DNA from: an uncultured Eubacteriales bacterium
GTDB taxonomy: Bacteria > Bacillota > Clostridia > Oscillospirales > Ruminococcaceae
Length of the DNA: 42,794 bases
Reading direction: 5' to 3'
Assembly (NCBI GenBank): GCA_900319075.1
Contig: ONMZ01000014.1
Span: 1 to 42,794 of the forward strand
Positions 3,298 to 42,794 of this stretch are shown one piece after another (within the stretch, counting starts at the first letter, position 1; each line of letters begins with the position of its first letter). A program made the position numbers and the translations under genes. Below the pieces are notes generated by a model. That model worked only from the letters and a program-made list of their open reading frames with translations, was not told the DNA's origin and did not search any database.

Positions 3298-3323
3298 TTG
3301 GATTTTCCTTTCCTATCAGCTTT

Positions 3324-3800
3324 TTACTGTCTTGTGATCTCAAGCACCTCGAACTTTATAAGTCCTGCAGGAGCTTCAACTTCAAATACATCGCCCACCT
3401 TTTTTCTCAAAGCGGCTTTACCGATAGGGGATTCGTCAGATATCTTTCCGTTGTCAGGGTCCGACTCGGTGGAACCTACGATCTGGAGAGTTTCGATCTC
3501 ATCAAATTCAAGATCCTTGATCTTTACGATAGAACCTACGCCGATCTCGTCGGTGGAGACTTCATGATCCTCAACTACGATGGCATTGGCGATGAGCAAT
3601 TCAAGCTCGTTAATACGTGACTCAAGGATCGCCTGTTCGTTCTTTGCCTCGTCATACTCGGCGTTCTCGGAAAGGTCGCCGAATGAACGGGCTTCTTTCA
3701 GCTTCTGTGCGACCTCTTTACGCTTGACGGTAACAAGGTACTCTCTTTCCTCCTGAAGTTTCTCGTAGCCGGCTCTTGAAACTGTCTTGGCATTTGCCAT
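3324..3800 (-). CDS. greA: Transcription elongation factor GreA
   Basis: Rescues backtracked RNA polymerase by stimulating its transcript-cleavage activity through the secondary channel. The 158 aa match the family length. The N-terminal coiled coil (about residues 10-75) carries the tip motif GDLSENAEYDEAKNEQ with the conserved acidic residues, and the C-terminal half has the FKBP-like fold with GSIVKIKDLE and the SPIGKAALRKKVGD segment. The start has TAGGAGTGA eight bases upstream. First gene of the greA-lysS operon, transcribed from a consensus promoter just upstream. Confidence 0.97.
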   Translation of the reverse strand: MANAKTVSRAGYEKLQEEREYLVTVKRKEVAQKLKEARSFGDLSENAEYDEAKNEQAILESRINELELLIANAIVVEDHEVSTDEIGVGSIVKIKDLEFDEIETLQIVGSTESDPDNGKISDESPIGKAALRKKVGDVFEVEAPAGLIKFEVLEITRQ

Positions 3801-3869
3801 GATATATCACTCCTAAATCTAAAAAAACTTTTAACGTTACGTTTGAAACAGGGATACTGTCAAAACATT

Positions 3870-3898
3870 ATTATACATTATTCCCCCCCATTTGTCAA
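3870..3898 (-). promoter_or_regulatory. SigA-type promoter of greA-lysS
   Basis: On the minus strand, TTGACA (3893-3898) and TATAAT (3870-3875) with a 17-base spacer, perfect at both hexamers. It lies about 70 bases upstream of the greA start. Confidence 0.87.
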
Positions 3899-3964
3899 GG
3901 CTTTGCAGGCGGTGGAGGACAAAAAGAAGGGGACAAAAAAGCACTAAATTTGTCGTATTTCCTA

Positions 3965-3993
3965 TTGACGAATTCCTATTAACGTGGTATACT
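3965..3993 (+). promoter_or_regulatory. SigA-type promoter of the smsCB-like operon
   Basis: TTGACG (3965-3970), 17-base spacer, TATACT (3988-3993). The longest open frame begins at 3984, inside this promoter, which rules out that upstream start. Confidence 0.82.
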
Positions 3994-4055
3994 ATACAAG
4001 GAGCAGTCCGAAAGTGGCTGCAAAAGGTATATTTAAGGAGATGGAAGGTAAAAAG

Positions 4056-4778
4056 ATGCTCAGACTTGAAAATATAAACTGGAGCCTTGAGGACGGCAGA
4101 GAGATACTCAACAATGTCAGCCTTGAGATCCCGGACAACAAGCTTATAGTTATTACAGGTCCCAACGGCGGCGGAAAGACGACCCTTGCAAAGGTGGTGG
4201 CAGGTCTTATTTCACCGGAGTCGGGAAAAATATTCTTTGACGGACAGGACATCACCGGTAAAGACATTACCGAAAGGGCAAAGCTTGGCATAAGCTATGC
4301 TTTTCAGCAGCCGGTAAGGTTCAAGGGGCTTACTGTGCGTGATCTGCTTGAACTTGCAGCAGGAAGAGAGCTGAAGCAGCCGGAGATATGCGAGCTTCTT
4401 GGCAAGGTAGGGCTTTGCAAGAACGATTATATCGACCGTGAGGTGAACGCATCACTTTCCGGGGGCGAGATAAAGCGCATCGAGATCGCAACTGTCCTTG
4501 CAAGAAACACCAAGCTTTCAATATTTGATGAGCCTGAGGCGGGCATAGATCTTTGGAGCTTTGCAGGTCTTGTTGACGTGTTCAAGGAAGTAAAGGACAA
4601 GGTCAACGGCACCCTTATGATAATCTCACATCAGGAGAGGATACTTGAGATCGCCGATGAGATAATCGTAATATCCAAAGGACAGCTTGAGGACAGCGGC
4701 TCGGCACAGGACATTCTTCCTAAGCTTATTTCGGGCAGCAGGACTCCAAGACCTTGTGAAAGGGGTGCACAGGCATGA
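4056..4778 (+). CDS. smsC: SufC/SmsC-like ABC ATPase for Fe-S cluster assembly
   Basis: The ATPase subunit of a SUF-type iron-sulfur cluster scaffold, a soluble ABC protein with no membrane partner. With the ATG at 4056 (GGAAGG seven bases upstream) it has 240 aa. Seen: Walker A GPNGGGKT (35-42), Q-loop glutamines at 84-85, signature LSGGE (134-138), and Walker B with FDEPEAGIDLW (157-167), followed by the switch His in ISHQE. Transcribed from a promoter at 3965-3993, it overlaps the next gene by four bases (ATGA). The pair with one SufB/D-like protein, and no SufS or SufU beside it, fits the minimal SMS system. The start at 4041 is possible but directly abuts its ribosome site. Confidence 0.88.
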   Translation: MLRLENINWSLEDGREILNNVSLEIPDNKLIVITGPNGGGKTTLAKVVAGLISPESGKIFFDGQDITGKDITERAKLGISYAFQQPVRFKGLTVRDLLELAAGRELKQPEICELLGKVGLCKNDYIDREVNASLSGGEIKRIEIATVLARNTKLSIFDEPEAGIDLWSFAGLVDVFKEVKDKVNGTLMIISHQERILEIADEIIVISKGQLEDSGSAQDILPKLISGSRTPRPCERGAQA

Positions 4779-5692
4779 ATGAAACAACAAAAGAGCTTTT
4801 GAAGATCATCTCTGATTTTGACGGAGAATTCAAGGGGGCATACAATATCCGTGAGGACGGTCAGTGCGCTGCAAGGGAGTCTACGGAGAATATAAAGATC
4901 GAGTCCAAAAAGGACGCTCCCGGACTTGTTATCCACATCAAACCCCATACCAAAGGGGAAAAGGTCTATATTCCTGCCTGTGTTACAAAAAGCGGGATAG
5001 ACGATCTTGTTTACAATGATTTCTATGTTGGCGAGGGTGCGGACGTAACCATAATCGCAGGATGCGGAGTGCATACGACAGGCGTGGAGGAAGCACGGCA
5101 CAACGGTATTCACCGTTTTATTCTGCAAAAGGATTCAAAGGTGCTGTATCAGGAAAAGCATATTGGTACAGGCAAACAGGAGGGTATCCGCAGGATCGAC
5201 CCGGTAACCGATGTGGAGCTTGGTGAGAACTCAAAGCTGACAATGGATACCGTACAGCTCAGCGGAGTTGATTTTACCACAAGAACCACAAGGGGCGTAC
5301 TTGGGGAAGGCGCAAGGCTCATTATTAAGGAAAGGATAATGACCGACGGCAAGGAACAGGCAAAGACCGATTTTTATGTTGAGCTTAAAGGGGAAAACAG
5401 CGGCGTTGATCTTATGTCAAGGTCGGTGGCAAGGGACGAGTCATATCAGGAGTATCACAGCGTGATAAAGGGCATGAATGTGTGCACGGGTCATTCCGAG
5501 TGCGATGCGATACTTGTGGGCAACGGCAAGGTCTCGGCATCGCCGCAGCTTGACGCAGAGCACCCGGACGCTGCGCTTATCCACGAGGCGGCTATCGGAA
5601 AGATAGCAGGGGAGCAGATCTTGAAGCTGCGTACCCTGGGACTTACCGAGGAGGAAGCGGAGCAGAAGATAATCTCGGGATTTTTGAAATAA
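4775..5692 (+). CDS. smsB: SufB/SufD-family scaffold protein, SmsB-like
   Basis: Scaffold partner of the preceding ATPase, expected to assemble Fe-S clusters on a right-handed beta-helix core. At 305 aa it is shorter than SufB (about 470-495). The C-terminal core is conserved: HSECDAILVG places Cys243 where SufB has its cluster-relevant Cys405, and IHEAAIGKIAGEQ places Glu271 where SufB has Glu434. A further Cys-His segment, GCGVHTTG, lies near residue 97. The ending, EEEAEQKIISGFL, is typical of the family. The translational overlap with smsC suggests coupled synthesis. A SufD-only role is unlikely because it is the only SufB/D-type gene in the operon; that it is a full SMS system is inference. 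Confidence 0.87.
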   Translation: MNETTKELLKIISDFDGEFKGAYNIREDGQCAARESTENIKIESKKDAPGLVIHIKPHTKGEKVYIPACVTKSGIDDLVYNDFYVGEGADVTIIAGCGVHTTGVEEARHNGIHRFILQKDSKVLYQEKHIGTGKQEGIRRIDPVTDVELGENSKLTMDTVQLSGVDFTTRTTRGVLGEGARLIIKERIMTDGKEQAKTDFYVELKGENSGVDLMSRSVARDESYQEYHSVIKGMNVCTGHSECDAILVGNGKVSASPQLDAEHPDAALIHEAAIGKIAGEQILKLRTLGLTEEEAEQKIISGFLK

Positions 5693-5703
5693 GGCATAAT
5701 AAA

Positions 5704-5733
5704 AAGAGGGCAGTGCTAACTGTCCTCTTTTTT
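5704..5733. terminator. Terminator after smsCB, shared with the convergent gene
   Basis: AAGAGGGCAG (5704-5713) pairs with CTGTCCTCTT (5720-5729, one G-U), followed by a T-run. It resembles the paaK/lysS terminator. The A-run on the left gives a U-tract in the other direction too. Confidence 0.85.
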
Positions 5734-5745
5734 GTACATTTATAT

Positions 5746-5943
5746 TCAATTATCCTTTATCTCGCAGTTTTCTATTCCAAATTCAAGTATAATGTTAATA
5801 AGCTCGTTGCGTGAGCGGTTTGTTGCTTTTGATAGATTTTCAAGCTGTTCAACGGTCTCGTCTTTAATACGCACCGAAAAAACCTTGTAGCCGTCATCGC
5901 CTTTAATACCGCTTTTTTTCGTAATTTCCAGTTTTTTCGCCAT
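5746..5943 (-). CDS. Ribbon-helix-helix DNA-binding protein (CopG/Arc type)
   Basis: A 65-aa protein. The lysine-rich N-terminus is followed by a beta-strand (KVFSVRIKDETV, about 21-32) and two helices (QLENLSKATN, SRNELINIILEFGIEN), the standard RHH fold that binds DNA as a dimer. The ATG at 5943 has AGAGGTGA upstream; the frame stays open further upstream, but only through the AT-rich operator region. Divergent from the membrane-protein gene at 6050. The shared 100-base gap contains regularly spaced TATGTTA heptamers, so autoregulation and control of the neighbour are likely (inference). No toxin gene lies downstream, so an antitoxin role is not supported. Confidence 0.8.
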   Translation of the reverse strand: MAKKLEITKKSGIKGDDGYKVFSVRIKDETVEQLENLSKATNRSRNELINIILEFGIENCEIKDN

Positions 5944-5954
5944 ATGATCACCTC

Positions 5955-6019
5955 TAACATATATTATAACTTGACAAACGCAAAAATATATGTTAAACTT
6001 TATGTTATAAAATATGTTA
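5955..6019. promoter_or_regulatory. Candidate RHH operator: array of TATGTTA heptamers
   Basis: The heptamer TATGTTA occurs at 5989-5995, 6001-6007 and 6013-6019, exactly 12 bases apart. Its inverse TAACATA is at 5955-5961; with flanking bases it forms a 9-bp inverted repeat with 5987-5995. The array overlaps the -10 box of the plus-strand promoter. Direct repeats of short sites at regular spacing are typical of RHH repressor operators. Confidence 0.6.
5971..5999 (+). promoter_or_regulatory. Promoter of the 6050 membrane-protein gene
   Basis: TTGACA (5971-5976), 17-base spacer, TAAACT (5994-5999), embedded in the heptamer array. A minus-strand TATAAT at 5963-5968 could serve the divergent regulator, but no matching -35 was found at normal spacing. 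Confidence 0.65.
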
Positions 6020-6049
6020 GCGAATAGCTGACACATAGGAGGTATATCT

Positions 6050-6610
6050 ATGGAGGATAATGTTGTTTATGAATCGACCACAGTTCATAATAGAAAAATG
6101 GGATATATCATATTCATTTTGTTGCCTATTATTGGCGTCGTTATCATAGTGCTATCTATGATACCAGTAAGCACTGTAAATGGCAAACATTTTATTGACC
6201 ACAATAATATATTTGGAGAATGGGTTACTTCTGAGCATATCGGCTATAGTCAATTAGGAACGCTGAAATCTTCTTTGCATAAACGAACAAGCGGTTTGAT
6301 AGGTATAGGATTAGTGCTTTTTGCTCCGTTTTCAATTCATTTATTTGTTTGCAGAAAAAACGCATTAAACTCCAAATTGCAGATAAGCAATGACTCGGTT
6401 TGGATTAAGCTGTCAGGTTCGTTTAGTGATAAAAAAGAAGTAATACCCTTGAAAAGTGATATTGATATAGCAATTGAAAAGGGCAAAATAGATAAGATAA
6501 TTGGAGGAGAAAAAATAATAGTTACTTATGCAATGAATAAGTATGTATTTAGGTGCATAGATAACGCAGATGAATTTGTTAAAGTATTTAGGAAAGCAAA
6601 ACAAGAATAA
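6050..6610 (+). CDS. Hypothetical membrane protein with two TM segments
   Basis: Not recognised. The 186-aa protein has two hydrophobic segments (about residues 19-41 and 83-101). The ~40-residue loop between them is polar and probably extracellular. The cytoplasmic C-terminal half (about 108-186) is a mixed alpha/beta region with alternating strands, possibly a PH-like membrane-associated domain (inference). The start has AGGAGG upstream. The gene is AT-rich compared with its neighbours (many AAA/ATA/TTA codons), which with the divergent RHH gene suggests a small acquired unit. A plus-strand promoter and a heptamer operator precede it, so it is probably under repression by the divergent RHH protein. 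Confidence 0.7.
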   Translation: MEDNVVYESTTVHNRKMGYIIFILLPIIGVVIIVLSMIPVSTVNGKHFIDHNNIFGEWVTSEHIGYSQLGTLKSSLHKRTSGLIGIGLVLFAPFSIHLFVCRKNALNSKLQISNDSVWIKLSGSFSDKKEVIPLKSDIDIAIEKGKIDKIIGGEKIIVTYAMNKYVFRCIDNADEFVKVFRKAKQE

Positions 6611-6618
6611 GAAAAAAC

Positions 6619-6655
6619 ACCTCTCACAGTTGAAAAACCGTGAGAGGTAATTTTT
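6619..6655. terminator. Bidirectional terminator between the 6050 gene and galE
   Basis: ACCTCTCAC (6619-6627) pairs perfectly with GTGAGAGGT (6640-6648), with an A-run before and TTTTT after. Confidence 0.87.
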
Positions 6656-6656
6656 G

Positions 6657-7667
6657 TTATAAGCCGTTGGGGTTCTTGCTGATAAAGTTCCAGCTGTCTG
6701 CGGTCATCTGATCGAGGTCGTACTTTGCCTCCCAGCCGAAAAGCTCCTTTGCCTTGTCGGTTTTTGCATAGTATGCAGGCAGGTCGCCGGGTCTGCGTGG
6801 GAGCACCTTATAGGGCAGCTGCTTTCCGCACGCCTTTTCAAAGCTATGCAGCACGTCAAACACGCTTGAGCCTTTGCCTGTGCCAAGATTCACCGCTTCA
6901 ACGCCCTTATGCTCAAGCACATATTTAACGGCGCACAGATGCCCTTTTGCCAGGTCGCAGACGTGGATATAATCCCTTACGCCCGTACCGTCGGGGGTAT
7001 CATAATCGTCGCCGAAAACCCCCAGTCTTTCAAGCTTGCCCACAGCCACCTGACAGATATAAGGCAGCAGATTGTTGGGTATCCCGTTGGGATCCTCGCC
7101 GATAAGCCCTGACGGGTGCGCCCCGATAGGATTGAAATATCTAAGCAGGGAAACTGCCCATTCGTTGTCCGAGGTGTAGACATCTTTAAGTATCTGCTCG
7201 ATAAAAAGCTTTGTATAGCCGTATGGATTTGTGGCGGAGGTGGGCATATCTTCAACATAGGGGATGGGATTCACAGGTCCGTAGACTGTTGCAGAGGAAG
7301 AGAAAACGATCCTTTTGCAGCCGTATTTCTGCATGGCTTTGATAAGCATGAGCGTGCCTGTGATGTTGTTGTGATAATATTTTACCGGCTGAGCAACAGA
7401 TTCGCCCACCGCTTTATAGCCTGCAAAATGGATGACCGCATCCACGTGGTTTTCTTCAAAGATCTTTTCCAGCTTTTCAAGGTCAAGCAGATCGACTTCA
7501 TAAAAACCGAAATCCTTGCCGGTGATAGTTTTTATCCTGTTCAGCGCCTCGGGCTTTGAATTTGAAAAGTTGTCGGCAATTATGATGTCGTAGCCTGCTT
7601 GGAGAAGCTCAACACAGGTGTGGCTGCCGATAAAGCCTGCACCGCCTGTTACGAGTATATTTGGCAT
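6657..7667 (-). CDS. galE: UDP-glucose 4-epimerase
   Basis: Interconverts UDP-glucose and UDP-galactose for the Leloir pathway and for cell-surface polysaccharide precursors; an NAD-dependent extended SDR. Seen: the Rossmann motif TGGAGFIG (residues 7-14), the catalytic YGYTK with preceding SSSATVYG, and the sugar-binding RYFNPIGAHPSG and YIHVCDLAKGH segments. The ATG at 7667 gives 336 aa and a ten-base spacing from AAAGGA; the ATG at 7676 sits one base from that site and is less likely. A TTGAAA/TATAAT promoter lies at the stop of the upstream gene, so it is probably transcribed on its own as well as by read-through. Confidence 0.95.
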   Translation of the reverse strand: MPNILVTGGAGFIGSHTCVELLQAGYDIIIADNFSNSKPEALNRIKTITGKDFGFYEVDLLDLEKLEKIFEENHVDAVIHFAGYKAVGESVAQPVKYYHNNITGTLMLIKAMQKYGCKRIVFSSSATVYGPVNPIPYVEDMPTSATNPYGYTKLFIEQILKDVYTSDNEWAVSLLRYFNPIGAHPSGLIGEDPNGIPNNLLPYICQVAVGKLERLGVFGDDYDTPDGTGVRDYIHVCDLAKGHLCAVKYVLEHKGVEAVNLGTGKGSSVFDVLHSFEKACGKQLPYKVLPRRPGDLPAYYAKTDKAKELFGWEAKYDLDQMTADSWNFISKNPNGL

Positions 7668-7731: not shown

Positions 7732-8750
7732 GTCCCCTGAGAAGATATTTGCGTAAGTTTCGTTCCGGGAAAGTAGTGGGTAAGTATATCATCGCAGCTT
7801 TTGCCCTGTTTTGCCATTTCGTTTGCGCCGAACTGGCTCATACCTACCATATGTCCCACGCCTTTGGTTTTGAAGATAAACTTGCCTTGTGAATGTTCCA
7901 CGGTAAAGACCGGGGAGTTAAGCCCCAAAATCTCGCACAGGCGCATGCCGGTAAGGGTCTGTGTGAATACCCTGGCGCAGAGCACATAGCCGTGGCTGTT
8001 CATCTGGGTTATTTCCAGCCACTTATCAGAGGGAGAGTCTGTTTTTATGTCCTTATAGGCACCGGTGATCTTTTCTTTGAACTGATCCTCCGTCAAGGTC
8101 AGCTCGCTTCCGGAGATCTCAAGGGTCTCATCGCTTTTGCTTTCCACCGATGAAAGATAGGGGATATCCTGTCCCCAGGCATCCTTTGCAGAGGCGGTAT
8201 AGCCGCAGGAAACTGCGTGGAAGGCGATAAGCACAGGTTCGTCTGCGTAGGAAAGGTACTTATCATGGGTGGCTTTCACCGCATCGAGGATCTTTGTGCG
8301 GGCTTGTTCATAGTTTTCTTTATAGAATTCCTTTGCCTGGTCGGGGGTGAAAAAAGCCTGGTACAGATTTGTATCGTCGCTCATCACTGCACCTTTGAGC
8401 TCGGGTGTGGGATTGGCGCTTTCGGATTTTGTGCGGTGCAGGGCATATGTTCTTGCAAGTACCGCCTGAGCCTGCAGGGCGGCAGGTTCAAAATCCGACG
8501 GCATCTGAGCCATGACTGCGCCCAGGACATAGTCATCCATTGTATATTCGTTTATTTCGCCGCTTTTTGCGGACAATATCTTTACCTTTTCCCCTGTGGG
8601 TATTATCTCACGGGGCGGCTGAGAACTCTGCGTGGCAGAGGAGCCTTCCTCACGGTCCGGGACAGGCTTGCCTGCACCGAGAAAGACCACGCAGGGGATC
8701 ACCAGCAGCATTATAGCAAAAACTACCGTTGATTGTATGTATTCTTTCAT
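7728..8750 (-). CDS. spoIID: SpoIID/LytB-family protein (stage II sporulation protein D-like)
   Basis: SpoIID is a membrane-anchored lytic transglycosylase that trims peptidoglycan during engulfment; related proteins modify amidases. Here 340 aa with one N-terminal TM segment (about 7-26) and a Ser/Pro-rich linker (36-50). The SpoIID domain runs from about residue 55, with YVLGAVMAQMP (74-84), LQAQAVLARTYALH, SCGYTASAKDAWG and the C-terminal GVGHMVGMSQFGA. The Glu of the usual EMP motif, catalytic in characterised SpoIID, reads as Gln82 here (codon at 8505-8507), so activity may be lost or altered. RBS AAGGAGG precedes the ATG. Whether it acts in sporulation or is a divergent paralogue cannot be decided from one locus. 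Confidence 0.88.
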   Translation of the reverse strand: MKEYIQSTVVFAIMLLVIPCVVFLGAGKPVPDREEGSSATQSSQPPREIIPTGEKVKILSAKSGEINEYTMDDYVLGAVMAQMPSDFEPAALQAQAVLARTYALHRTKSESANPTPELKGAVMSDDTNLYQAFFTPDQAKEFYKENYEQARTKILDAVKATHDKYLSYADEPVLIAFHAVSCGYTASAKDAWGQDIPYLSSVESKSDETLEISGSELTLTEDQFKEKITGAYKDIKTDSPSDKWLEITQMNSHGYVLCARVFTQTLTGMRLCEILGLNSPVFTVEHSQGKFIFKTKGVGHMVGMSQFGANEMAKQGKSCDDILTHYFPGTKLTQISSQGT

Positions 8751-8880
8751 ATTTATCCTCCTTTTTTGCTTGTCCTTGTATTGACAGTTCCTTTCTGACT
8801 ATATGTATATTCAGCTTTGTCCGTGATTATTCCGGATCTTTGCTCAAACAATGCACAGGGTCCGCAAAAAGGCACCATAC

Positions 8881-8909
8881 TTGACAAAAAAGCTAAAATA
8901 TTGTAAAAT
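8881..8909 (+). promoter_or_regulatory. SigA-type promoter of the citrate synthase gene
   Basis: Perfect TTGACA (8881-8886), 17-base spacer, TAAAAT (8904-8909). The leader of about 90 bases contains a small GC-rich hairpin near 8954-8972 but no recognised riboswitch. Confidence 0.8.
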
Positions 8910-9004
8910 GAATATTCAAGGTTTAGATGCCTTAAAAAATAAAACGAGTGCTTGCTGCCGGCTTTTAACGGCAGATACAGAACAAATTGACAGGAGTGGA
9001 GAAA

Positions 9005-10351
9005 ATGCAGAACGAAACAGCACGCTCGATTTTTTATAAACAGTTCAGGGATAACAATACCATTGCGCCTTCATTTTACGACAAGTATGTCGTAAAAAGA
9101 GGTCTGAGAAACGCTGACGGGACAGGCGTTATCGCCGGTCTTACCAATATATGCAACGTTCACGGATACGTTATCAACGAGGGCGAAAAGGCTCCTATCG
9201 AGGGTCAGCTCATTTACCGTGGTTACAACATCAATGATCTGGTGGAAAACGCAAGGAAAGAGAACCGTTTTGCCTACGAAGAAGTGGTCTATCTTCTGCT
9301 TATGGGTGATCTTCCCACAAAGACGGAGCTGGACGCATTCAGGCATATGATCGCAGACAACAGACCTTTGCCGGAGGATTTCTTTGAGGATATGATCTCA
9401 AAGGCGCCTTCAAAGAACATTATGAACAAGATGGAAAGGTCTATCCTTGCCCTTTATTCATACGATTCAAACCCGGAGGAGCGTTCTCCGGAGTTTGAGA
9501 TGGCTACGGCTATCTCCATAATCTCAAAGCTGCCAAATATCATGGTATCGGCTTATCAGGTCAAAAGACGTTCTTTTGACGGGGAAAGTATGTTCATGCA
9601 CCCGCTTATCCCCAAACAGACAACGGCAGAGATGATCCTTTCGGCTTTGCGCCCGGACAGAAAATTCACAGACGAGGAGGCAAAGCTCCTTGACCTTCTG
9701 ATGGTGCTTCACGCCGAGCACGGCGGCGGCAACAACTCAACATTTGCGTGCAGGGTGCTTACCTCATCGGGAACAGACCCATACTCGGCTTATGCAGCTG
9801 CTGTGGGTGCGCTCAAGGGTACACGTCACGGCGGCGCCAACATAAAGGTGTCGGCAATGCACAAGTTTATCGAGGAAAATGTTGATAACTGGGCGGACGA
9901 GAAGAAGGTCGGGGACATACTTCGCAGGATAGTGCGCAAGGAAGCCTTTGACAAGTCCGGTCTTATCTACGGTATGGGCCATGCGGTATACACCCTTTCC
10001 GACCCCAGAGCCAAGATACTCAAAGCCAATGCAAGGAGCCTTGCGGAGGGTACGGAGTTTGAAAAAGAGTTCAGGCTGCTGGAGACCATAGAAAAGCTTA
10101 CCCCGGAGATCGTAAGAGAGGAAAAGGGCATCGACAAGACCATGTGCGCCAATGTGGATATGTACTCGGGTCTGGTTTATAAGATGCTTGGCATTCCGGA
10201 CGACCTTTTCACACCTATGTTTGCAGTTTCAAGAATGGCAGGCTGGTGCGCTCACAGATTTGAGGAGCTGGTAACGGGCAAACGTATAATCAGACCGGCT
10301 TATAAGGCTGTTATGAAGGAAAGAGAGTATATTCCTCTGGACGAGAGATAA
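9005..10351 (+). CDS. gltA: Citrate synthase
   Basis: Condenses acetyl-CoA and oxaloacetate to citrate, the first step toward 2-oxoglutarate and glutamate in anaerobes with an incomplete TCA cycle. With the ATG at 9005 (AGGAGTGG eight bases upstream) it is 448 aa. The family signature is clear: LHAEHGGGNNSTFACRV contains a catalytic His and substrate contacts, GALKGTRHGGANIKV follows, and GLIYGMGHAVYTLSDPRA carries the second catalytic His; an Asp and Arg follow near the C-terminus (RMAGWCAHRFEE). It is the typical si-type GltA family, not the Re-citrate synthase of some clostridia. It stands alone on its own promoter, with no aconitase or isocitrate dehydrogenase adjacent. Confidence 0.95.
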   Translation: MQNETARSIFYKQFRDNNTIAPSFYDKYVVKRGLRNADGTGVIAGLTNICNVHGYVINEGEKAPIEGQLIYRGYNINDLVENARKENRFAYEEVVYLLLMGDLPTKTELDAFRHMIADNRPLPEDFFEDMISKAPSKNIMNKMERSILALYSYDSNPEERSPEFEMATAISIISKLPNIMVSAYQVKRRSFDGESMFMHPLIPKQTTAEMILSALRPDRKFTDEEAKLLDLLMVLHAEHGGGNNSTFACRVLTSSGTDPYSAYAAAVGALKGTRHGGANIKVSAMHKFIEENVDNWADEKKVGDILRRIVRKEAFDKSGLIYGMGHAVYTLSDPRAKILKANARSLAEGTEFEKEFRLLETIEKLTPEIVREEKGIDKTMCANVDMYSGLVYKMLGIPDDLFTPMFAVSRMAGWCAHRFEELVTGKRIIRPAYKAVMKEREYIPLDER

Positions 10352-10365
10352 TTTGTACAGGGTAC

Positions 10366-10394
10366 TTGAAAAAAAGAGAGTAATGTGGTATAAT
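10366..10394 (+). promoter_or_regulatory. SigA-type promoter of the lipoprotein/two-component cluster
   Basis: TTGAAA (10366-10371), 17-base spacer, perfect TATAAT (10389-10394), placed 15 bases after the citrate synthase stop. Confidence 0.85.
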
Positions 10395-10473
10395 AAGGTC
10401 GGGTATGTGCGCCCGGCCTTATTTTTGGTTTTATGGGCATGAAAACAGGTAAAAAAGGGAAAGGAGTGGTCAC

Positions 10474-37655: not shown

Positions 37656-37829
37656 ATGAAAGCAACAGGAATCGTAAGACGTATCGACGACCTTGGCAGG
37701 GTCGTTATACCTAAGGAGATAAGACGCACCATGCGTATAAGAGAGGGCGACCCATTACTGACAGTGTTGACACAAGAGCATCGATTCTACGCCGCGATGA
37801 GTGCTTTGGCACAGAGGCTACATATCTGA
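37656..37829 (+). pseudogene. Truncated SpoVT/AbrB-family regulator
   Basis: The frame opens ATGAAAGCAACAGG after AAAGGA, and the first ~33 residues are a textbook SpoVT-AbrB DNA-binding domain: MKATGIVRRIDDLGRVVIPK, then EIRRTMRIREGDP. At about 37,750 the similarity stops and ~24 unrelated residues lead to a TGA (57 aa in all). In SpoVT the domain should be followed by a long helix and a GAF-like sensor domain; neither is found later in the window. The break coincides with the start of the accessory region, so recombination or deletion is the likely cause. The shortened peptide could still dimerise poorly on DNA. Confidence 0.8.
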
Positions 37830-37876: not shown

Positions 37877-37923
37877 AATGACAATAATAGACGTATTTTA
37901 TATTACGTGCTCATCAAGCAGAA
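37867..37923. repeat. Inverted repeat with nested palindrome at the accessory-region edge
   Basis: TTCTGCTTGA (37867-37876) and TCAAGCAGAA (37914-37923) are perfect 10-bp arms. Between them, ACGTAT...ATTACGT-like arms (37891-37907) form an inner imperfect palindrome. It spans the end of the ATPase gene; it could be that gene's terminator or a recombination site. Confidence 0.55.
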
Positions 37924-39187
37924 AATCTACAAGCCCTACATTAAGCACTCCATTATCATCATACCAACGTTTGCGTATATCTTTGCGTACGACGATCTTG
38001 GGGAAAGAATCAATTGTGAGTGAGAACGGCTTTAGTTCTTGCTCGGCCTTTTCCTCGTCAGGTAAGGCAAACGCCGACTGGATATACACCTTTTTCCCGC
38101 CTTTAGTAGCGACAAAGTCTATCTCACGTGCAACTTTGGAATAGCTGCCGCTGGCATTTCTTTCGTTTGAAAAAACCACTCCCACATCTACTGCAAATCC
38201 ACGAATGATGAGCTCATTATAGATGATGTTCTCCATGATATGAGTCATCTCCTGCTGGCGAAAACCAATACGAGCGTTGCGCAAACCGATGTCCTCACAG
38301 TAATACTTGTAAGGGTACTCAAAATACTTGCGTCCCTTGACATCGTAACGTTTGGCTTCGCTGAATAAGAAAGCGTCCTCCAGGTGTGCGATGTATGCGG
38401 AGATGGTGTTCTGTGCAATATTCTCGCCTGTTTTTGAACGCAGAGTATCTGCGATCTTCTTCGGGTTGGTCAGTGAGCCTACTGATGAACAAAGCAGATC
38501 AAGCAGCAGACCGAGGATATCTTCACGCTCGATCTTTTTACGCTCAACGATGTCTTTGATATACACCTCTGAAAACAGCGATGACAAATAGTTCGCTTTT
38601 GCAGTATCGTTAGGGCGAGACAACACCAGAGGCATACCACCATAAAAAGCATAATCCTCAAATGCGTCTTCCTTGTCACCGCCGACCGCTGAGTAATACT
38701 CCGCAAAGTTCAGAGGGTGGACTTGTATCTCATCGCTGCGTCCACGGAATTCTGTAAGTATATCTTTTGACAGCATCTTTGAGTTGCTGCCCGTTACATA
38801 CACATCGAGATTTGGCAGCGATCGCAGGTCGTTGAGTGCATCGTAGAAAGTGATCTTCTTGCCATCAGGATTATAGGGGTTCTTCACCTCGTCCGACATC
38901 TGAATCTCATCAACGAACAGATAGAACTTTCCGTCCTGTCCCTCGACCCTGCTGCGGACATACTCAGCCAGCACAAGCGGATCACGGTACTTGATATCCT
39001 TAGTTAGGTCAAGCTCTATTGATATGATATTGTCTGCCGGAACGCCCTGCTCCAACAGATATTTCTTGAACAAGGTATTCAGCAGAAAAGACTTTCCGCA
39101 GCGGCGGATACCTGTGATCACCTTGACTTGTCCGTCCCACATATAGTCGATCACCTGCTGCAAATATCTGTCTCTTTTGATCTCCAT
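37898..39187 (-). CDS. AAA_14/DUF4143-family ATPase
   Basis: A 429-aa protein of the widespread ATP-binding family with an N-terminal AAA_14 domain and a C-terminal DUF4143 domain. The start at 39187 has GGGGTGAT upstream. Seen: Walker A GIRRCGKS (26-33), Walker B FYLFVDEIQM (near 100), sensor-type VYVTGSNSKML and a conserved LTEFRGRSDEIQVHPLNFAEY. The C-terminal half has the DUF4143 features NTISAYIAHLEDAFLFSEAKRYD and EIDFVATKGGKKVYIQ, a nuclease-like strand pattern. These genes are mobile, often patchy between strains, with unclear function. It directly abuts the SpoVT break and has its own promoter. Confidence 0.9.
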   Translation of the reverse strand: MEIKRDRYLQQVIDYMWDGQVKVITGIRRCGKSFLLNTLFKKYLLEQGVPADNIISIELDLTKDIKYRDPLVLAEYVRSRVEGQDGKFYLFVDEIQMSDEVKNPYNPDGKKITFYDALNDLRSLPNLDVYVTGSNSKMLSKDILTEFRGRSDEIQVHPLNFAEYYSAVGGDKEDAFEDYAFYGGMPLVLSRPNDTAKANYLSSLFSEVYIKDIVERKKIEREDILGLLLDLLCSSVGSLTNPKKIADTLRSKTGENIAQNTISAYIAHLEDAFLFSEAKRYDVKGRKYFEYPYKYYCEDIGLRNARIGFRQQEMTHIMENIIYNELIIRGFAVDVGVVFSNERNASGSYSKVAREIDFVATKGGKKVYIQSAFALPDEEKAEQELKPFSLTIDSFPKIVVRKDIRKRWYDDNGVLNVGLVDFLLDEHVI

Positions 39188-39236
39188 TTTATCACCCCAT
39201 TGAAAACTACGGCGAGATTTTGTACAAGTTTTCATT

Positions 39237-39411: not shown

Positions 39412-39450
39412 ATCTCCCTGTCTGAGAGGTTCCGGACAGGGAGATTTTTT
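39412..39450 (+). terminator. Plus-strand terminator without an upstream gene
   Basis: ATCTCCCTGTC (39412-39422) pairs perfectly with GACAGGGAGAT (39435-39445), then TTTTT. The nearest genes on both sides are on the minus strand. It may end a small RNA, be a relic, or act as the terminator of the minus-strand gene at 39484 despite a poor U-tract that way. The rest of 39267-39411 shows no frame. Confidence 0.7.
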
Positions 39451-39483: not shown

Positions 39484-39975
39484 TTAATCATCTTTTTTAT
39501 CATTTCTATCAACGGCGGATGGCAGCATGGCGATTAAACTGTCTTGTTCCTCCGGAGGAAGATCCAACAAACGCTTGTATATATCATAGCTGTGCAGCAC
39601 AAGTGAAGTAAGTGAAATCCTTTTGTCAGAAGCTATCTGCTTCATTTCTTCATGAATATATTTGGGAAGACGCAAAGAAAGCGAACTGGTAGTGCTATTT
39701 CTATGATCATTGTTTTTTTTGATGCTCATTTTTCGGGAACACATACGACAAATGGTCTGTGAACCTGATGCGTTAAACCTTTTGCCGCATTCCTTGCATT
39801 TTCTGAACGGAAGCTCTGATTTAAGGTTTCCACCGTTGAATTTGCGCTTTTCGTAATACACTCGTTTTGATATGGCTGTATTTTGTGCTTTGCAGTCATT
39901 GCATAAGCCTTCTCTGTTAACTCTGGCAACATATGTTTTGCCGCATTTACTGCATTTTACTAAATATTCTGGCAA
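39484..39975 (-). CDS. Zinc-ribbon and ribbon-helix-helix regulator-like protein
   Basis: A 163-aa protein; I chose the TTG at 39975 because GGAGGTGA sits just upstream, giving MPEYLVKCSKCGKTYV. Two zinc ribbons occupy residues 8-27 (CSKC...CNDC) and about 59-80 (CKEC...CRMC). A basic linker follows, then a C-terminal ribbon-helix-helix or Arc-like domain (SLRLPKYIHEEMKQIASDKR, SLTSLVLHSYDIYKRLLD). It is divergent from the ClpX-like operon with ~337 bases between, containing a perfect palindrome. A DNA-binding regulator of itself and the operon is a reasonable inference. No toxin partner overlaps it. Confidence 0.78.
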   Translation of the reverse strand: MPEYLVKCSKCGKTYVARVNREGLCNDCKAQNTAISKRVYYEKRKFNGGNLKSELPFRKCKECGKRFNASGSQTICRMCSRKMSIKKNNDHRNSTTSSLSLRLPKYIHEEMKQIASDKRISLTSLVLHSYDIYKRLLDLPPEEQDSLIAMLPSAVDRNDKKDD

Positions 39976-40119
39976 ATCATCACCTCCAGCCTTTGATAAC
40001 ATAATAGCACAGATAAACGCAAAAATCAATGGGAAAGAAAAATATTAAAAAAGTGTTTCTAAAAGAACAGGTATAATCTCAAAAATTTACAAATTGATTG
40101 GTGATTATTTATATTATTT

Positions 40120-40133
40120 CAGTTTGCAAACTG
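40120..40133. promoter_or_regulatory. Perfect 14-bp palindrome, candidate operator
   Basis: CAGTTTGCAAACTG equals its own reverse complement, flanked by an outer weaker inverted pair (GTGATT at 40101-40106, AATCAC at 40147-40152). It lies in the divergent intergenic region between the zinc-ribbon/RHH gene and the ClpX-like operon. Confidence 0.6.
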
Positions 40134-40185
40134 TGCAATATTCACAAATCACTATTTGAATTAGCACGTTTTTCAGAAAAAAGAC

Positions 40186-40214
40186 TTGACTATTTATCGA
40201 TAGTAAGCAATAAT
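40186..40214 (+). promoter_or_regulatory. Promoter of the ClpX-like operon
   Basis: TTGACT (40186-40191), 17-base spacer, AATAAT (40209-40214), about 100 bases before the gene and ~50 bases after the palindrome. Apart from these two sites the 39976-40312 interval is AT-rich with no frame. Confidence 0.6.
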
Positions 40215-40312
40215 CATTATAAAGAAAAAAGGCCTTGTTTTTCTAAAGCACCAGAACGACTGTGATAGTATTTATACAGAAGTGAAATACCGGATGATGA
40301 AAGGCGGATAAA

Positions 40313-41404
40313 ATGAGCACACCTAAAATGACAGAAGAACATATAAAGGAACGCAAAGAGGAGATACGTCGTGCAATGGAAAAAATCACACCTCGGATAA
40401 TGCTAGATTATTTTGAAAAGAGAATAATCGGGCAGCACAAGGAACTTATGATGATAGTATATATGCTATATACGTATTTGCAACTGGCTTGTAAAGAAGT
40501 CATAACCGATGTGCCAAGCTGGGTACTGACAGCACCAAGTGGATGCGGAAAGACCGAGGTATATCGTACATTAAAGGCATTTTGTGCTGATCAAGGAATA
40601 CCCATTCCAATAATCCACGTAGATCTTAGTCAGATTACTGAGGCTGGATTTCAAGGAAAGGAAGCTAACAGCATAATACAATCACTTGCTCTTGAGGATA
40701 GTGTTCTCGATGGGATAGGTATATGTTTTCTTGATGAGGCTGACAAAAAATTCTCTCCTTCGCACAACTCAGATGGAGAGGACATCAATGCTAAGACACA
40801 GTCAAATCTGCTGACGATGATCGAGGGAAGTGTAGAGAATATTCCGCTTAAAAATGGCGGAGCAAGACGAATGGATTCCAACCAGACAATGTTTGTGCTT
40901 ATGGGAGCATTTCAGGATTTGCGTAACAGCAAGCAGAAACGTATTCAAACAACATATCGGGGCATTGGATTTATATGCCGGGATGTGGAGCCAAGCACGG
41001 AGGATGTATTCTACGGGGATATAACTCTTGAGGATATGATAGAGTTCGGAATGCTTGAAGAGATCGCCGGAAGAATGCAGATGGTAGTCAATTTTCATAA
41101 GCTGTCAATAAAGGATATGACAGATCTTATACTTTCAAAGATCCATATACTCGAGCAGGAACTTCAAATCTCGATAGTGTTCGACGATAATACAATCAAC
41201 TCGCTTTTAGATATAAGCTATACGAATTTGGGCGTGCGCCATGTTACTAACTGTCTCAGGACGCTTGCATTCAGAGCAATATCAGAAGTGTTTTACGACA
41301 AAGCCATCGACAGTAACTGTTGCCTCGTGATAGAGAATTCAAACAGTGCATACATAGAATTTGCTGGTGAGCAAGAGGTGCAAAAAACACATAGATGCGG
41401 CTGA
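40313..41404 (+). CDS. ClpX-like AAA+ unfoldase without the N-terminal zinc domain
   Basis: A 363-aa AAA+ protein of the ClpX subfamily, lacking ClpX's N-terminal zinc-binding domain. Seen: Walker A PSGCGKT (75-81), pore-loop AGFQG (111-115, ClpX has AGYVG), Walker B ICFLDEAD (137-144), TMIEGSVENIP (168-178, matching LIEGTV of ClpX), MGAF in the sensor-1 strand, RGIGF (216-220) where ClpX has its ClpP-docking IGF loop, EIAGRM with the Arg finger (R254), and sensor-2 GVRHVTNCLRT (307-317). It should form a hexameric protein unfoldase. AAGGCGG precedes the ATG. It heads an operon with unknown partners, suggesting a dedicated accessory role. Confidence 0.85.
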   Translation: MSTPKMTEEHIKERKEEIRRAMEKITPRIMLDYFEKRIIGQHKELMMIVYMLYTYLQLACKEVITDVPSWVLTAPSGCGKTEVYRTLKAFCADQGIPIPIIHVDLSQITEAGFQGKEANSIIQSLALEDSVLDGIGICFLDEADKKFSPSHNSDGEDINAKTQSNLLTMIEGSVENIPLKNGGARRMDSNQTMFVLMGAFQDLRNSKQKRIQTTYRGIGFICRDVEPSTEDVFYGDITLEDMIEFGMLEEIAGRMQMVVNFHKLSIKDMTDLILSKIHILEQELQISIVFDDNTINSLLDISYTNLGVRHVTNCLRTLAFRAISEVFYDKAIDSNCCLVIENSNSAYIEFAGEQEVQKTHRCG

Positions 41405-41438
41405 GCAATCATCTTAGTCGGATACTGGAGGAATTATT

Positions 41439-41732
41439 ATGAATACTATATTTGAAGATCGCCCAAAAAGTGATAAAGAGATCAACATCATACTTGTCAA
41501 AAGAGATGTAGCCATTGAGTGCGCCGCAGCGGTCACCGGATTCATTTTCCGCAACTACGACCTCAAGCATATTCCCTACCCTAAGGACATCAAAGAGATA
41601 TACGAGCGCAATACTTATTACGAGCAAAACGCTTTTATGTGCGACTCCGAAAAGGAGCTTGACAGGATACTTGCTGAAATAAAAAAGGACAACGAGTATG
41701 TCAAAGCGCATACTCCTCTGCCGCACAAGTGA
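41439..41732 (+). CDS. Hypothetical 97-aa protein of the ClpX-like operon
   Basis: Not recognised. GGAGG lies seven bases before the ATG, 34 bases after the ClpX-like stop. The protein is soluble, with a strand-rich start (KEINIILVKRDVAIECAAAV), a central YPKDIKEIYERNTYYEQN segment and a charged C-terminal helix (SEKELDRILAEIKKDNEYVK). It has only two cysteines and no TM or signal. Codon use is richer in GC than the neighbouring frames, so the operon may be a mosaic. Position between the unfoldase and the repeat protein suggests an adaptor or substrate, which is only an inference. Confidence 0.65.
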   Translation: MNTIFEDRPKSDKEINIILVKRDVAIECAAAVTGFIFRNYDLKHIPYPKDIKEIYERNTYYEQNAFMCDSEKELDRILAEIKKDNEYVKAHTPLPHK

Positions 41733-41741
41733 GGAGACTAT

Positions 41742-42686
41742 ATGGACACGCTATACAGGATCGAGATACTCCTTGAAAGAAATATTATTATGGAAAAGAT
41801 GCTGAAGCTTCTAGACGACACATTTCAGCCTGATAAAAACGGATTTGAGAAAGAGCAGCTACCTCAGACCGTACGCTACGGCTCAAACAAGACAGAAGAC
41901 GTGCAAACACTGAAAGATGCAGCGAATCAGATATTTGATGCATTGCTTTACCCATGTGTCAGTATATTCTGGTATGAGACAGAAAACAATGTTTTTGAAG
42001 ATCTGACTATCCCGTGGTGGAGTACTTTAAAAGACAATAAACGTGACGAATTCGAATTTGCCGTATCATTTACTTTAAAAAGTGATGTTGATCGATTATG
42101 GTTTGCAGAACGTTTTGATAGGATACTTAATGTCAACGGAGTAAAGTGCAAGCTAAGGATCAATGGGCAGACAGTCGAATTCGGAACGAATGTACACGAC
42201 CACTATGCGAGAATGTGGTCAGCAATCCTAGATGTGCTTGACAGCGATCTTGTAACTCTGTTTATCGGGATCATGTGGCTTCACTACAATGAAGACAGTT
42301 GTGAAGATATACTGTCTCAGCATCTGGAGGAACACCCCGAGGCAATCAAACGTACGATAAACGATCCACCACTGTTCAAAATAATGATCACCGTGAAGCA
42401 AACAGTTGATCCTGATAAGTTTGCTAACACTATTGATAAAATGCTTGCTTGCTATCGTACAATTTGTAGGATAGCAACATACGGCTCTATGATCGAGTTC
42501 AGTTCATCAAATCCGGATCACTACAAAGGTATGCGTGGAGTGATCTCAGATGCACTTGATAGCAAACTGCTCAAATACATAGACGGTGTTTTGTGGATAG
42601 ACTGCAAAACAGGTGAGACAGAAGATGTGCTGATCCAATTCTTAGAAGAGCTTGAAAAGGAGTCTGACAATGGAGACAAACAATAA
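41742..42686 (+). CDS. Protein with two copies of an unrecognised ~95-residue domain
   Basis: Not recognised. The 314-aa protein, nine bases after the previous gene with GAGGAG upstream, contains two divergent copies of the same domain: residues about 103-198 and 210-306. Shared pattern: a beta-strand and helix (FxxxIDxML-like), then a DHYxxM segment, xDxLDSxLxxxIxGxxW, and a final EDxLxQxLEE helix. The N-terminal ~100 residues are not repeated and include a helical RIEILLERNIIMEKMLKLL stretch. No catalytic motif, TM or signal is visible. The next gene begins with another copy of the domain, so the family is expanded in tandem. Confidence 0.72.
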   Translation: MDTLYRIEILLERNIIMEKMLKLLDDTFQPDKNGFEKEQLPQTVRYGSNKTEDVQTLKDAANQIFDALLYPCVSIFWYETENNVFEDLTIPWWSTLKDNKRDEFEFAVSFTLKSDVDRLWFAERFDRILNVNGVKCKLRINGQTVEFGTNVHDHYARMWSAILDVLDSDLVTLFIGIMWLHYNEDSCEDILSQHLEEHPEAIKRTINDPPLFKIMITVKQTVDPDKFANTIDKMLACYRTICRIATYGSMIEFSSSNPDHYKGMRGVISDALDSKLLKYIDGVLWIDCKTGETEDVLIQFLEELEKESDNGDKQ

Positions 42687-42794
42687 ACCACTATTCAAAA
42701 TGGTTTTTACATTAAAGGATAATGCTGATCCTGTTAAGTTCGCTGAAATCATAGATGAAATGCTTGCTTGTTATAAGACCTACTGCTCAAAGGA
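42670..42794 (+). CDS. Start of a gene with a third copy of the repeat domain (cut by the window end)
   Basis: An open frame from the ATG at 42670, overlapping the previous stop by 17 bases, runs to the window end. Its first residues (PLFKMVFTLKDNADPVKFAE, then IIDEMLACYKTYC) align closely with the second domain of the preceding protein (PLFKIMITVKQTVDPDKFAN, then TIDKMLACYRTIC). A GGAG-type site (AAAAGGAG) lies at 42655-42662. It is therefore another member of the same domain family, cut off after about 41 codons; whether it holds one or several domains is unknown. Confidence 0.7.
   Translation, partial: METNNKPLFKMVFTLKDNADPVKFAEIIDEMLACYKTYCSK

What the first reader, a model, noticed from the sequence alone, without database searches (positions are those of the whole stretch)
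39484..42794. Accessory module: ClpX-like unfoldase operon with a family of unknown repeat-domain proteins and a zinc-ribbon/RHH regulator
A dedicated ClpX paralogue without the adaptor-binding N-domain heads an operon of uncharacterised proteins; two consecutive genes carry copies of one unknown domain. A divergent DNA-binding regulator and a perfect palindrome lie upstream, and the module sits behind a recombination scar. This is the layout of a self-contained, mobile protein-remodelling or defence-like system. The family assignments come from motifs; the system idea is inference.
Basis: partly seen in the sequence, partly recalled or inferred. Interest (0 to 1): 0.82.

Follow-up and report, generated by a model that had tools for sequence, protein, structure and literature searches.

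The report
Accessory ClpX-like unfoldase, exchangeable block
A Ruminococcus-like bacterium carries, besides its normal protein-unfolding motor ClpX, a rare second version in a stretch of DNA that looks recently swapped between species, and some relatives of this second version sit beside an unusual set of ClpP-protease genes.

Summary
The 363-aa protein (40313-41404) is real: a ClpX-derived AAA+ unfoldase, split from housekeeping ClpX with 100/100 support, keeping Walker A/B, arginine finger, sensor-2 arginine, an aromatic pore loop and the ClpP-docking IGF motif, but lacking the zinc-finger N-terminus seen in 19 of 33 loci. It is accessory: 6 of 297 family genomes.

The 97-aa and 314-aa genes accompany it in only one other genome found, G010. 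In the shared block (40261-42683) the ClpX-like and 314-aa genes have dS 0.15 and 0.10, against 0.69-1.35 for eight nearby core genes: recent exchange. The unknown domain is real (two copies and a partial third) and models confidently.

The zinc-ribbon/RHH gene and the palindrome lie outside the shared block. "Defence" is unsupported.

Unexpectedly, relatives lie beside an HTH protein (9 of 33 loci) or a dedicated ClpP plus soluble VirD4/TraG-like ATPase (4 of 33); 21 have neither. HTH- or macro-ClpP-VirD4 cassettes recur without this ClpX. Seven literature searches found none described.

Best reading: an exchangeable, specialised ClpXP motor. New variant of a known kind; the ClpP-VirD4 link is the boldest lead.

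The parts
40313..41404 (+). ClpX-like AAA+ unfoldase, 363 aa, no N-terminal zinc domain
   Evidence: separate from housekeeping ClpX
40532..40558 (+). Walker A (APSGCGKTE, residues 74-82)
   Evidence: A74 P75 S76 G77 G79 K80 T81 E82 invariant over 20 aligned members
40646..40657 (+). pore-1 loop GFQG (residues 112-115; GYVG in ClpX)
   Evidence: alignments
40724..40747 (+). Walker B (CFLDEADK, residues 138-145)
   Evidence: invariant over 20 members
40964..40972 (+). IGF ClpP-docking motif (residues 218-220)
   Evidence: aligned with IGF of solved ClpX; [ILV]GF in 23 of 31 family ORFs scored
41072..41074 (+). Arg254 (AGR box), taken as the arginine finger
   Evidence: invariant; the role is recalled from ClpX
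41237..41239 (+). Arg309 (GVR), taken as the sensor-2 arginine
   Evidence: invariant; the role is recalled from ClpX
41439..41732 (+). 97-aa protein of unknown family
   Evidence: 84% identical in G010, otherwise one E 0.008 hit in 110 genomes
41742..42686 (+). 314-aa protein with two copies of an unknown alpha/beta domain (residues about 101-200 and 205-308)
42670..42794 (+). start of a further ORF with a third copy of the domain, cut by the contig end
40261..42683 (.). block shared with G010 at 92.6% DNA identity; left flanks unrelated
39484..40029 (-). zinc-ribbon plus RHH-like protein, 181 aa; judged NOT part of the module
   Evidence: below-cut-off or weak matches; outside the block shared with G010
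40120..40133 (.). 14-base perfect palindrome CAGTTTGCAAACTG, outside the shared block
37656..37829 (+).

Best explanation
An exchangeable genomic block encodes a specialised second ClpX: a hexameric AAA+ unfoldase that docks through its IGF loops on ClpP (here presumably the housekeeping ClpP, the only full-scoring ClpP found in this genome) and threads a restricted set of substrates through its pore for degradation. Because it lacks the N-terminal zinc domain, it should ignore the adaptors of ordinary ClpX; substrates would be chosen by its own pore and by partner proteins, for which the neighbouring 97-aa and repeat-domain proteins are candidates as adaptors or substrates. Shown: ClpX ancestry, a separate clade, the motor residues, the IGF motif, the domain repeats, recent exchange of the block. 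Inferred: hexamer, ClpP use, degradation. Speculative: the role of the unknown proteins. Across the clade, links to an HTH protein, a dedicated ClpP and a soluble VirD4/TraG-like ATPase suggest that the family works in accessory ClpP systems.
For: Motor residues invariant over 20 members. IGF aligned on IGF of ClpX. [ILV]GF in 23 of 27 scored family ORFs without a ClpP beside them but 0 of 4 with one (Fisher p 0.0022; about two independent lineages only; as a control, 10 of 17 housekeeping ClpX have [ILV]GF and the other 7 MGF). Family against ClpX 100/100. Own ClpX and ClpP present. dS 0.15, 0.10 and 0.23 (ClpX-like, first 233 codons of the 314-aa gene, Fic) against 0.69-1.35 in 8 core genes. 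HTH beside the ClpX-like gene in 9 of 33 loci, ClpP and VirD4-like in 4 of 33; relatives of the HTH protein precede ClpP and VirD4-like genes in 6 of 7 loci of genomes without this ClpX at E 1e-50. The window's copy groups with L040 and L055 (92/80, not a starred branch), and L055 has ClpX-like, HTH, ClpP and VirD4-like in a row.
Against: No ClpP, HTH or VirD4-like gene lies near the window's copy, and its genome (87% complete) has no VirD4-like match. 21 of 33 loci have none of these partners in the DNA held; 9 have the HTH, 4 have ClpP and VirD4-like, one of these has both. IGF conservation does not prove ClpP binding. The 97-aa gene has dS 0.67, near the core value, so the block is a mosaic. 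The right flank (Rrf2-cysK) is the same region in both genomes, so exchange may have been by homologous recombination rather than by a mobile element; no integrase or transposase appeared among the five window proteins scanned.
Confidence: 0.6

Rival explanations
1. The protein is a remodelling chaperone without proteolysis: it unfolds or disassembles partners such as the repeat-domain proteins, and the IGF motif is a relic or little used.
For: No ClpP gene near the window's copy; [ILV]GF missing in 8 of 31 scored ORFs, 4 of them without a neighbouring ClpP, one of these four (L098) having FGF.
Against: [ILV]GF kept in 23 of 27 ORFs without their own ClpP although the best-matching stretches are mostly only 37-45% identical to the window's protein.
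Confidence: 0.2
2. A selfish or decaying cargo gene: a ClpX copy carried at a recombination-prone site with no coherent system around it.
For: Neighbourhoods differ from locus to locus; the G010 copy of the 314-aa gene is split between frames and L063 is in three pieces; sparse distribution.
Against: Purifying selection on the ClpX-like gene (dN 0.031, dS 0.151); motor residues invariant.
Confidence: 0.15
3. A stand-alone defence system.
For: Accessory, exchanged block; in L057 an AAA_5 gene (McrB-like by eye) and an MmeI_N-type gene lie a few genes upstream of the ClpX-like gene; the VirD4-like ATPase of L108 matches PADLOC mad8 at 41.7 bits, E 2e-11.
Against: The window's ClpX-like protein has only weak PADLOC matches (best 22.7 bits) and the 97-aa and 314-aa proteins none; no conserved effector with the window's copy.
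Confidence: 0.08

Closest known systems
ClpX (housekeeping, TIGR00382 / PRK05342)
   Same: AAA+ core with Walker A/B, the AGR and GVR arginines, aromatic pore-1 loop, IGF motif; E 1e-19 to PDB ClpX chains
   Different: 24-29% identity to most ClpX rows, separate side of the tree, no N-terminal zinc domain in the window copy, pore loop mostly G[FY]KG (GFQG in the window) instead of GYVG, 88-103 bits against cut-offs of 359-371
HslU
   Same: AAA+ unfoldase for a peptidase; NCBIfam hslU 55.9 bits
   Different: Far below the 362-bit cut-off and below ClpX; the window protein carries ClpX's IGF motif
Conjugative coupling protein VirD4/TraG (PF02534), for the ATPase beside some relatives
   Same: PF02534 and PF12696 matches
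   Different: Short form (398-540 aa ORFs) with a ClpP gene just upstream in 18 of 19 loci; long form (582-595 aa ORFs) in 0 of 11
ClpP with Asn in place of the triad Asp, as in Listeria ClpP1 (recalled)
   Same: The four neighbouring ClpPs keep Ser and His but have N or Q at the position aligned with Asp (which Asp is catalytic is recalled)
   Different: Paired with a VirD4-like ATPase and a ClpX-like protein; no second ClpP gene was sought there

Membership tests
ClpX (TIGR00382 / PRK05342 equivalog) | score over curated cut-off | tested here: not met
   88.1 against 370.75 and 102.7 against 359 bits
ClpX | groups with housekeeping ClpX in a tree | tested here: not met
   31 family rows and 17 ClpX rows lie on two sides of a 100/100 branch; the tool warns of long branches
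ClpX | Walker A/B, arginine finger, sensor-2 arginine | tested here: met
   residues invariant in 20 of 20; roles of the two arginines recalled
ClpX | IGF loop for ClpP docking | tested here: met
   RGIGF aligned with GIGF of ClpX
ClpX | N-terminal zinc-binding domain with two CxxC pairs | tested here: not met
   absent in the window copy; 17 of 36 family ORFs have C-x2-C-x(18-27)-C-x2-C in their first 90 residues, two more loci (L051, L063) by eye
ClpX | ATP-driven unfolding and ClpP-dependent degradation | not testable with these tools
   needs biochemistry
HslU | score over curated cut-off | tested here: not met
   55.9 against 362.45 bits
HslU | I-domain | not tested
   no separate test made
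Anti-phage defence system | matches a described system in PADLOC | tested here: not met
   ClpX-like protein best 22.7 bits (PDC-M37B), 97-aa and 314-aa proteins none; among nine partner and relative proteins the best is mad8, 41.7 bits, for a VirD4-like ATPase
Anti-phage defence system | protects against phage | not testable with these tools
   needs plaque assays
Mobile element | transfer visible between species | tested here: met
   dS 0.10-0.23 in three genes of the block against 0.69-1.35 in eight flanking core genes; the 97-aa gene, 0.67, does not show it
Mobile element | own integrase, transposase or defined ends | tested here: inconclusive
   none among the five window proteins scanned; the block's right part lies beyond the contig end; right flank is the same region in both genomes

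The most novel reading that the evidence does not exclude
The clade is one motor of an undescribed accessory proteolytic machine of gut Clostridia: a dedicated ClpP, a soluble VirD4/TraG-like ATPase (HerA-FtsK superfamily, recalled), an HTH or macro-domain sensor, and optionally this ClpX-like protein, so that a DNA-pump-type ATPase and a ClpX-type ATPase serve the same peptidase barrel. The window's copy would be a mobile satellite of that machine; its near-twin in G010 shares a genome with such a ClpP-VirD4 pair (C17).
Probability: 0.25. Interest if true: 0.85.

Novelty: new variant of a known kind. Interest (0 to 1): 0.55.

Why it matters
Bacteria are generally thought to rely on one ClpX (general knowledge), so an accessory, exchangeable ClpX clade raises the question of what needs its own unfoldase. 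The clade points to a recurring ClpP-VirD4-like gene pair that can be tested directly by purifying the two proteins: does a VirD4-type ATPase dock on ClpP? If so, a new motor class for a classic protease would be established. The exchange signal also shows an AAA+ machine being traded between related species.

Tried and rejected
Viral origin: the ClpX-like protein and its alignment found no relative in IMG/VR. Phage and plasmid searches found 76 and 66 records, each best place below 60% identity; the 20 rows listed for each are ClpX-type matches of at most 28.7% (the other rows were not seen). The domain found nothing in viral contigs, and its alignment was too variable to scan with. VirD4-like proteins in four viral contigs have no ClpP match in the DNA held. 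RNA families and tRNAs in the window: none.

Structural relatives of the repeat domain: AlphaFold2 gave a confident model, but no fold search could be run; a sequence search of solved structures gave nothing better than E 0.09. The clade's N-domain was not modelled; its profile hit eukaryotic zinc fingers and LIM proteins of many kinds, best E 1e-12 (PRDM9), which I take as generic zinc-finger matches.

Considered and dropped: the zinc-ribbon/RHH gene as module regulator (outside the block shared with G010); a shared C-terminal tag as a module feature (among the loci held it was found only in G016:C74).

Rows dropped before counts: three loci (G358, G331, G143) are the same contigs as L048, L050 and L055 and were not counted twice among the 33; L062, L063 and L064 (short, broken or cut) were not scored for the IGF motif; 24 of the 54 VirD4-like places came without DNA and were not checked for ClpP (some of them were fetched later).
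Full report

THE MOTOR. The protein matches AAA and AAA_2 above cut-off and ClpX best among NCBI families, but far below that family's cut-off. In alignment with solved ClpX it keeps the pore-1 loop (GFQG for GYVG) and the IGF motif. Walker A and B and the AGR and GVR arginines are invariant over 20 members. In a tree of 48 sequences the 31 family rows and 17 ClpX rows are split with 100/100 support, though the tool warns of long branches. The genome has its own ClpX with a ClpP close by; a second PF00574 match, at C17, scores 80 bits (over that family's cut-off) against 274 for the housekeeping ClpP and matches the dedicated-ClpP profile only at E 8e-7.

DISTRIBUTION. One scan of genome contigs gave 26 relatives, in records titled Ruminococcus, Ruminiclostridium, Oscillospiraceae, Lachnospiraceae, Clostridia or Clostridiales; where a title spells out an animal source it is a herbivore gut. 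At E 1e-50 or better, the window's genome counted: 6 of 297 family genomes, 2 of 394 order genomes, 3 of 391 class genomes; these draws overlap. In the genus, strong matches in 3 of 28 other genomes (G010, G016, G020). No relative was confirmed in viral contigs. Most relatives are longer (467-593 aa where complete) and carry an extra N-terminal region. Two CxxC pairs 18 to 27 residues apart stand in the first 90 residues of 17 of 36 family ORFs, and by eye in two more loci (L051, L063), so in 19 of 33 loci; the spacing resembles ClpX's own zinc domain (recalled). The window copy, its G010 twin, L043, L062 and one of the two L059 ORFs have no such extension.

IS IT MOBILE? The block 40261-42683 is 92.6% identical to G010:C2:86856-89274, while the left flanks are unrelated. 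Contig C21 of the window's genome continues the block: its end matches G010 89711-90155, then a Fic gene (named by eye), then an Rrf2-cysK-suf region (named by eye), which in G010 lies about 12 kb further on. C42-C21 adjacency is inferred from G010, not shown. Eight genes of that flank have dS 0.69-1.35 between the two species; the ClpX-like gene has 0.15, the first 233 codons of the 314-aa gene 0.10, Fic 0.23, but the 97-aa gene 0.67. So most of the block was exchanged recently, as a mosaic. No integrase was found among the window proteins scanned. The zinc-ribbon/RHH gene and the palindrome lie outside the block.

DO THE UNKNOWN PROTEINS BELONG? The 314-aa protein or its domain was found in 3 of 100 genomes (G000, G010, G016), the 97-aa protein in G000 and G010 plus one E 0.008 hit out of 110. 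They lie beside the ClpX-like gene in 2 of 33 loci. In G016 the domain is a single 102-aa protein in an array of small genes on another contig than the ClpX-like gene. The link is therefore not established.

THE WIDER LINK. Of 33 loci (window, 26, 6 new ones), 9 have an HTH protein next to the ClpX-like gene and 4 have a ClpP-like protease with a VirD4/TraG-like ATPase; one, L055, has all four genes in a row; 21 have none of these partners. Several contigs end close to the gene, and some loci are near-duplicates (L056/L057, L042/L045, L092/L093, L096/L097, window/L039), so these counts are rough. Searching the HTH protein gave 9 of 297 genomes, two of them seed rows; of the other seven loci, six have HTH, ClpP and VirD4-like genes in that order, and none of the seven genomes has the ClpX-like gene at E 1e-50. 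Searching the VirD4-like protein gave 41 of 297 genomes and 54 places; 30 came with DNA: of 19 short forms 18 have a ClpP gene just upstream (at most about 0.4 kb), of 11 long forms none. The seeds were ClpP neighbours, and one of the 18 (L115, the L055 place) is a seed. In 8 loci a gene of one cluster lies before ClpP, with a macro domain (PF01661) in the three scanned. None of the 25 loci fetched for these cassettes (L108-L114, L145-L162) shows the ClpX-like gene near the VirD4-like or HTH gene. G010 carries a ClpP-VirD4 pair on C17; the window's genome has no VirD4-like match. The window's copy groups with L040 and L055 (92/80). ORFs with their own ClpP beside them lack the [ILV]GF motif (0 of 4), those without mostly keep it (23 of 27; Fisher p 0.0022). 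The four come from about two lineages, and two relatives of L053 (L052, L061) have also lost it without a ClpP in view, so this is suggestive only. Of 17 housekeeping ClpX in the same one search have [ILV]GF and 7 have MGF; no family member has MGF.

MECHANISM. Best supported: a specialised ClpX that uses ClpP. Rivals: chaperone only; selfish or decaying cargo; defence. PADLOC gave only weak matches to the window's module proteins; among partners the best was mad8 to a VirD4-like ATPase, 41.7 bits.

LITERATURE. Seven searches (four of them with no paper) returned no paper whose listing describes this ClpX clade or a ClpP-VirD4 cassette; for two papers I read only the passages around the terms and found nothing relevant (PMC12419801, PMC6669625). 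The library holds open-licence papers only, and of the 21 papers I saw 15, so this is weak evidence of absence.

VERDICT. The recurring ClpP-VirD4 cassette is the most interesting lead.

Noticed in passing
L071 (G016:C74:31000-43356), ORFs 27-743, 1831-2424, 2634-3398, 3400-4053, 4423-4677, 5327-6835, 8315-8962, 10060-10473: Eight otherwise different proteins in one array end in the same tail, ELDLT-x(3-5)-R[GE]R(S), as if tagged for recruitment, secretion or degradation; one copy of the window's unknown domain lies in the array. The tail was seen in no other place among the loci held.
   Followed up: partly
L108-L112, L114, L145-L150, L152, L165, L166: Recurring cassette of ClpP-like protease and short soluble VirD4/TraG-like ATPase, with an HTH or macro-domain protein before it in many, seen without the ClpX-like gene nearby.
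   Followed up: partly
L053, L055, L056, L057 ClpP genes: The ClpP-like proteins keep Ser and His but have N or Q where the catalytic Asp is expected (position recalled).
   Followed up: partly
L096, L097, L056, L108, G010:C2:90199-90894: Metallophosphoesterase-like genes (named by eye) recur near ClpX-like or ClpP-VirD4 genes.
   Followed up: no
37898-39235: ATPase with AAA_14 and DUF4143 (PADLOC PDC-S01, E 1e-110) left of the block; a truncated relative lies right of the block in G010 (92357-92818).
   Followed up: partly
39412-39445: Strong terminator-like hairpin on the + strand with no evident + strand gene directly upstream.
   Followed up: no
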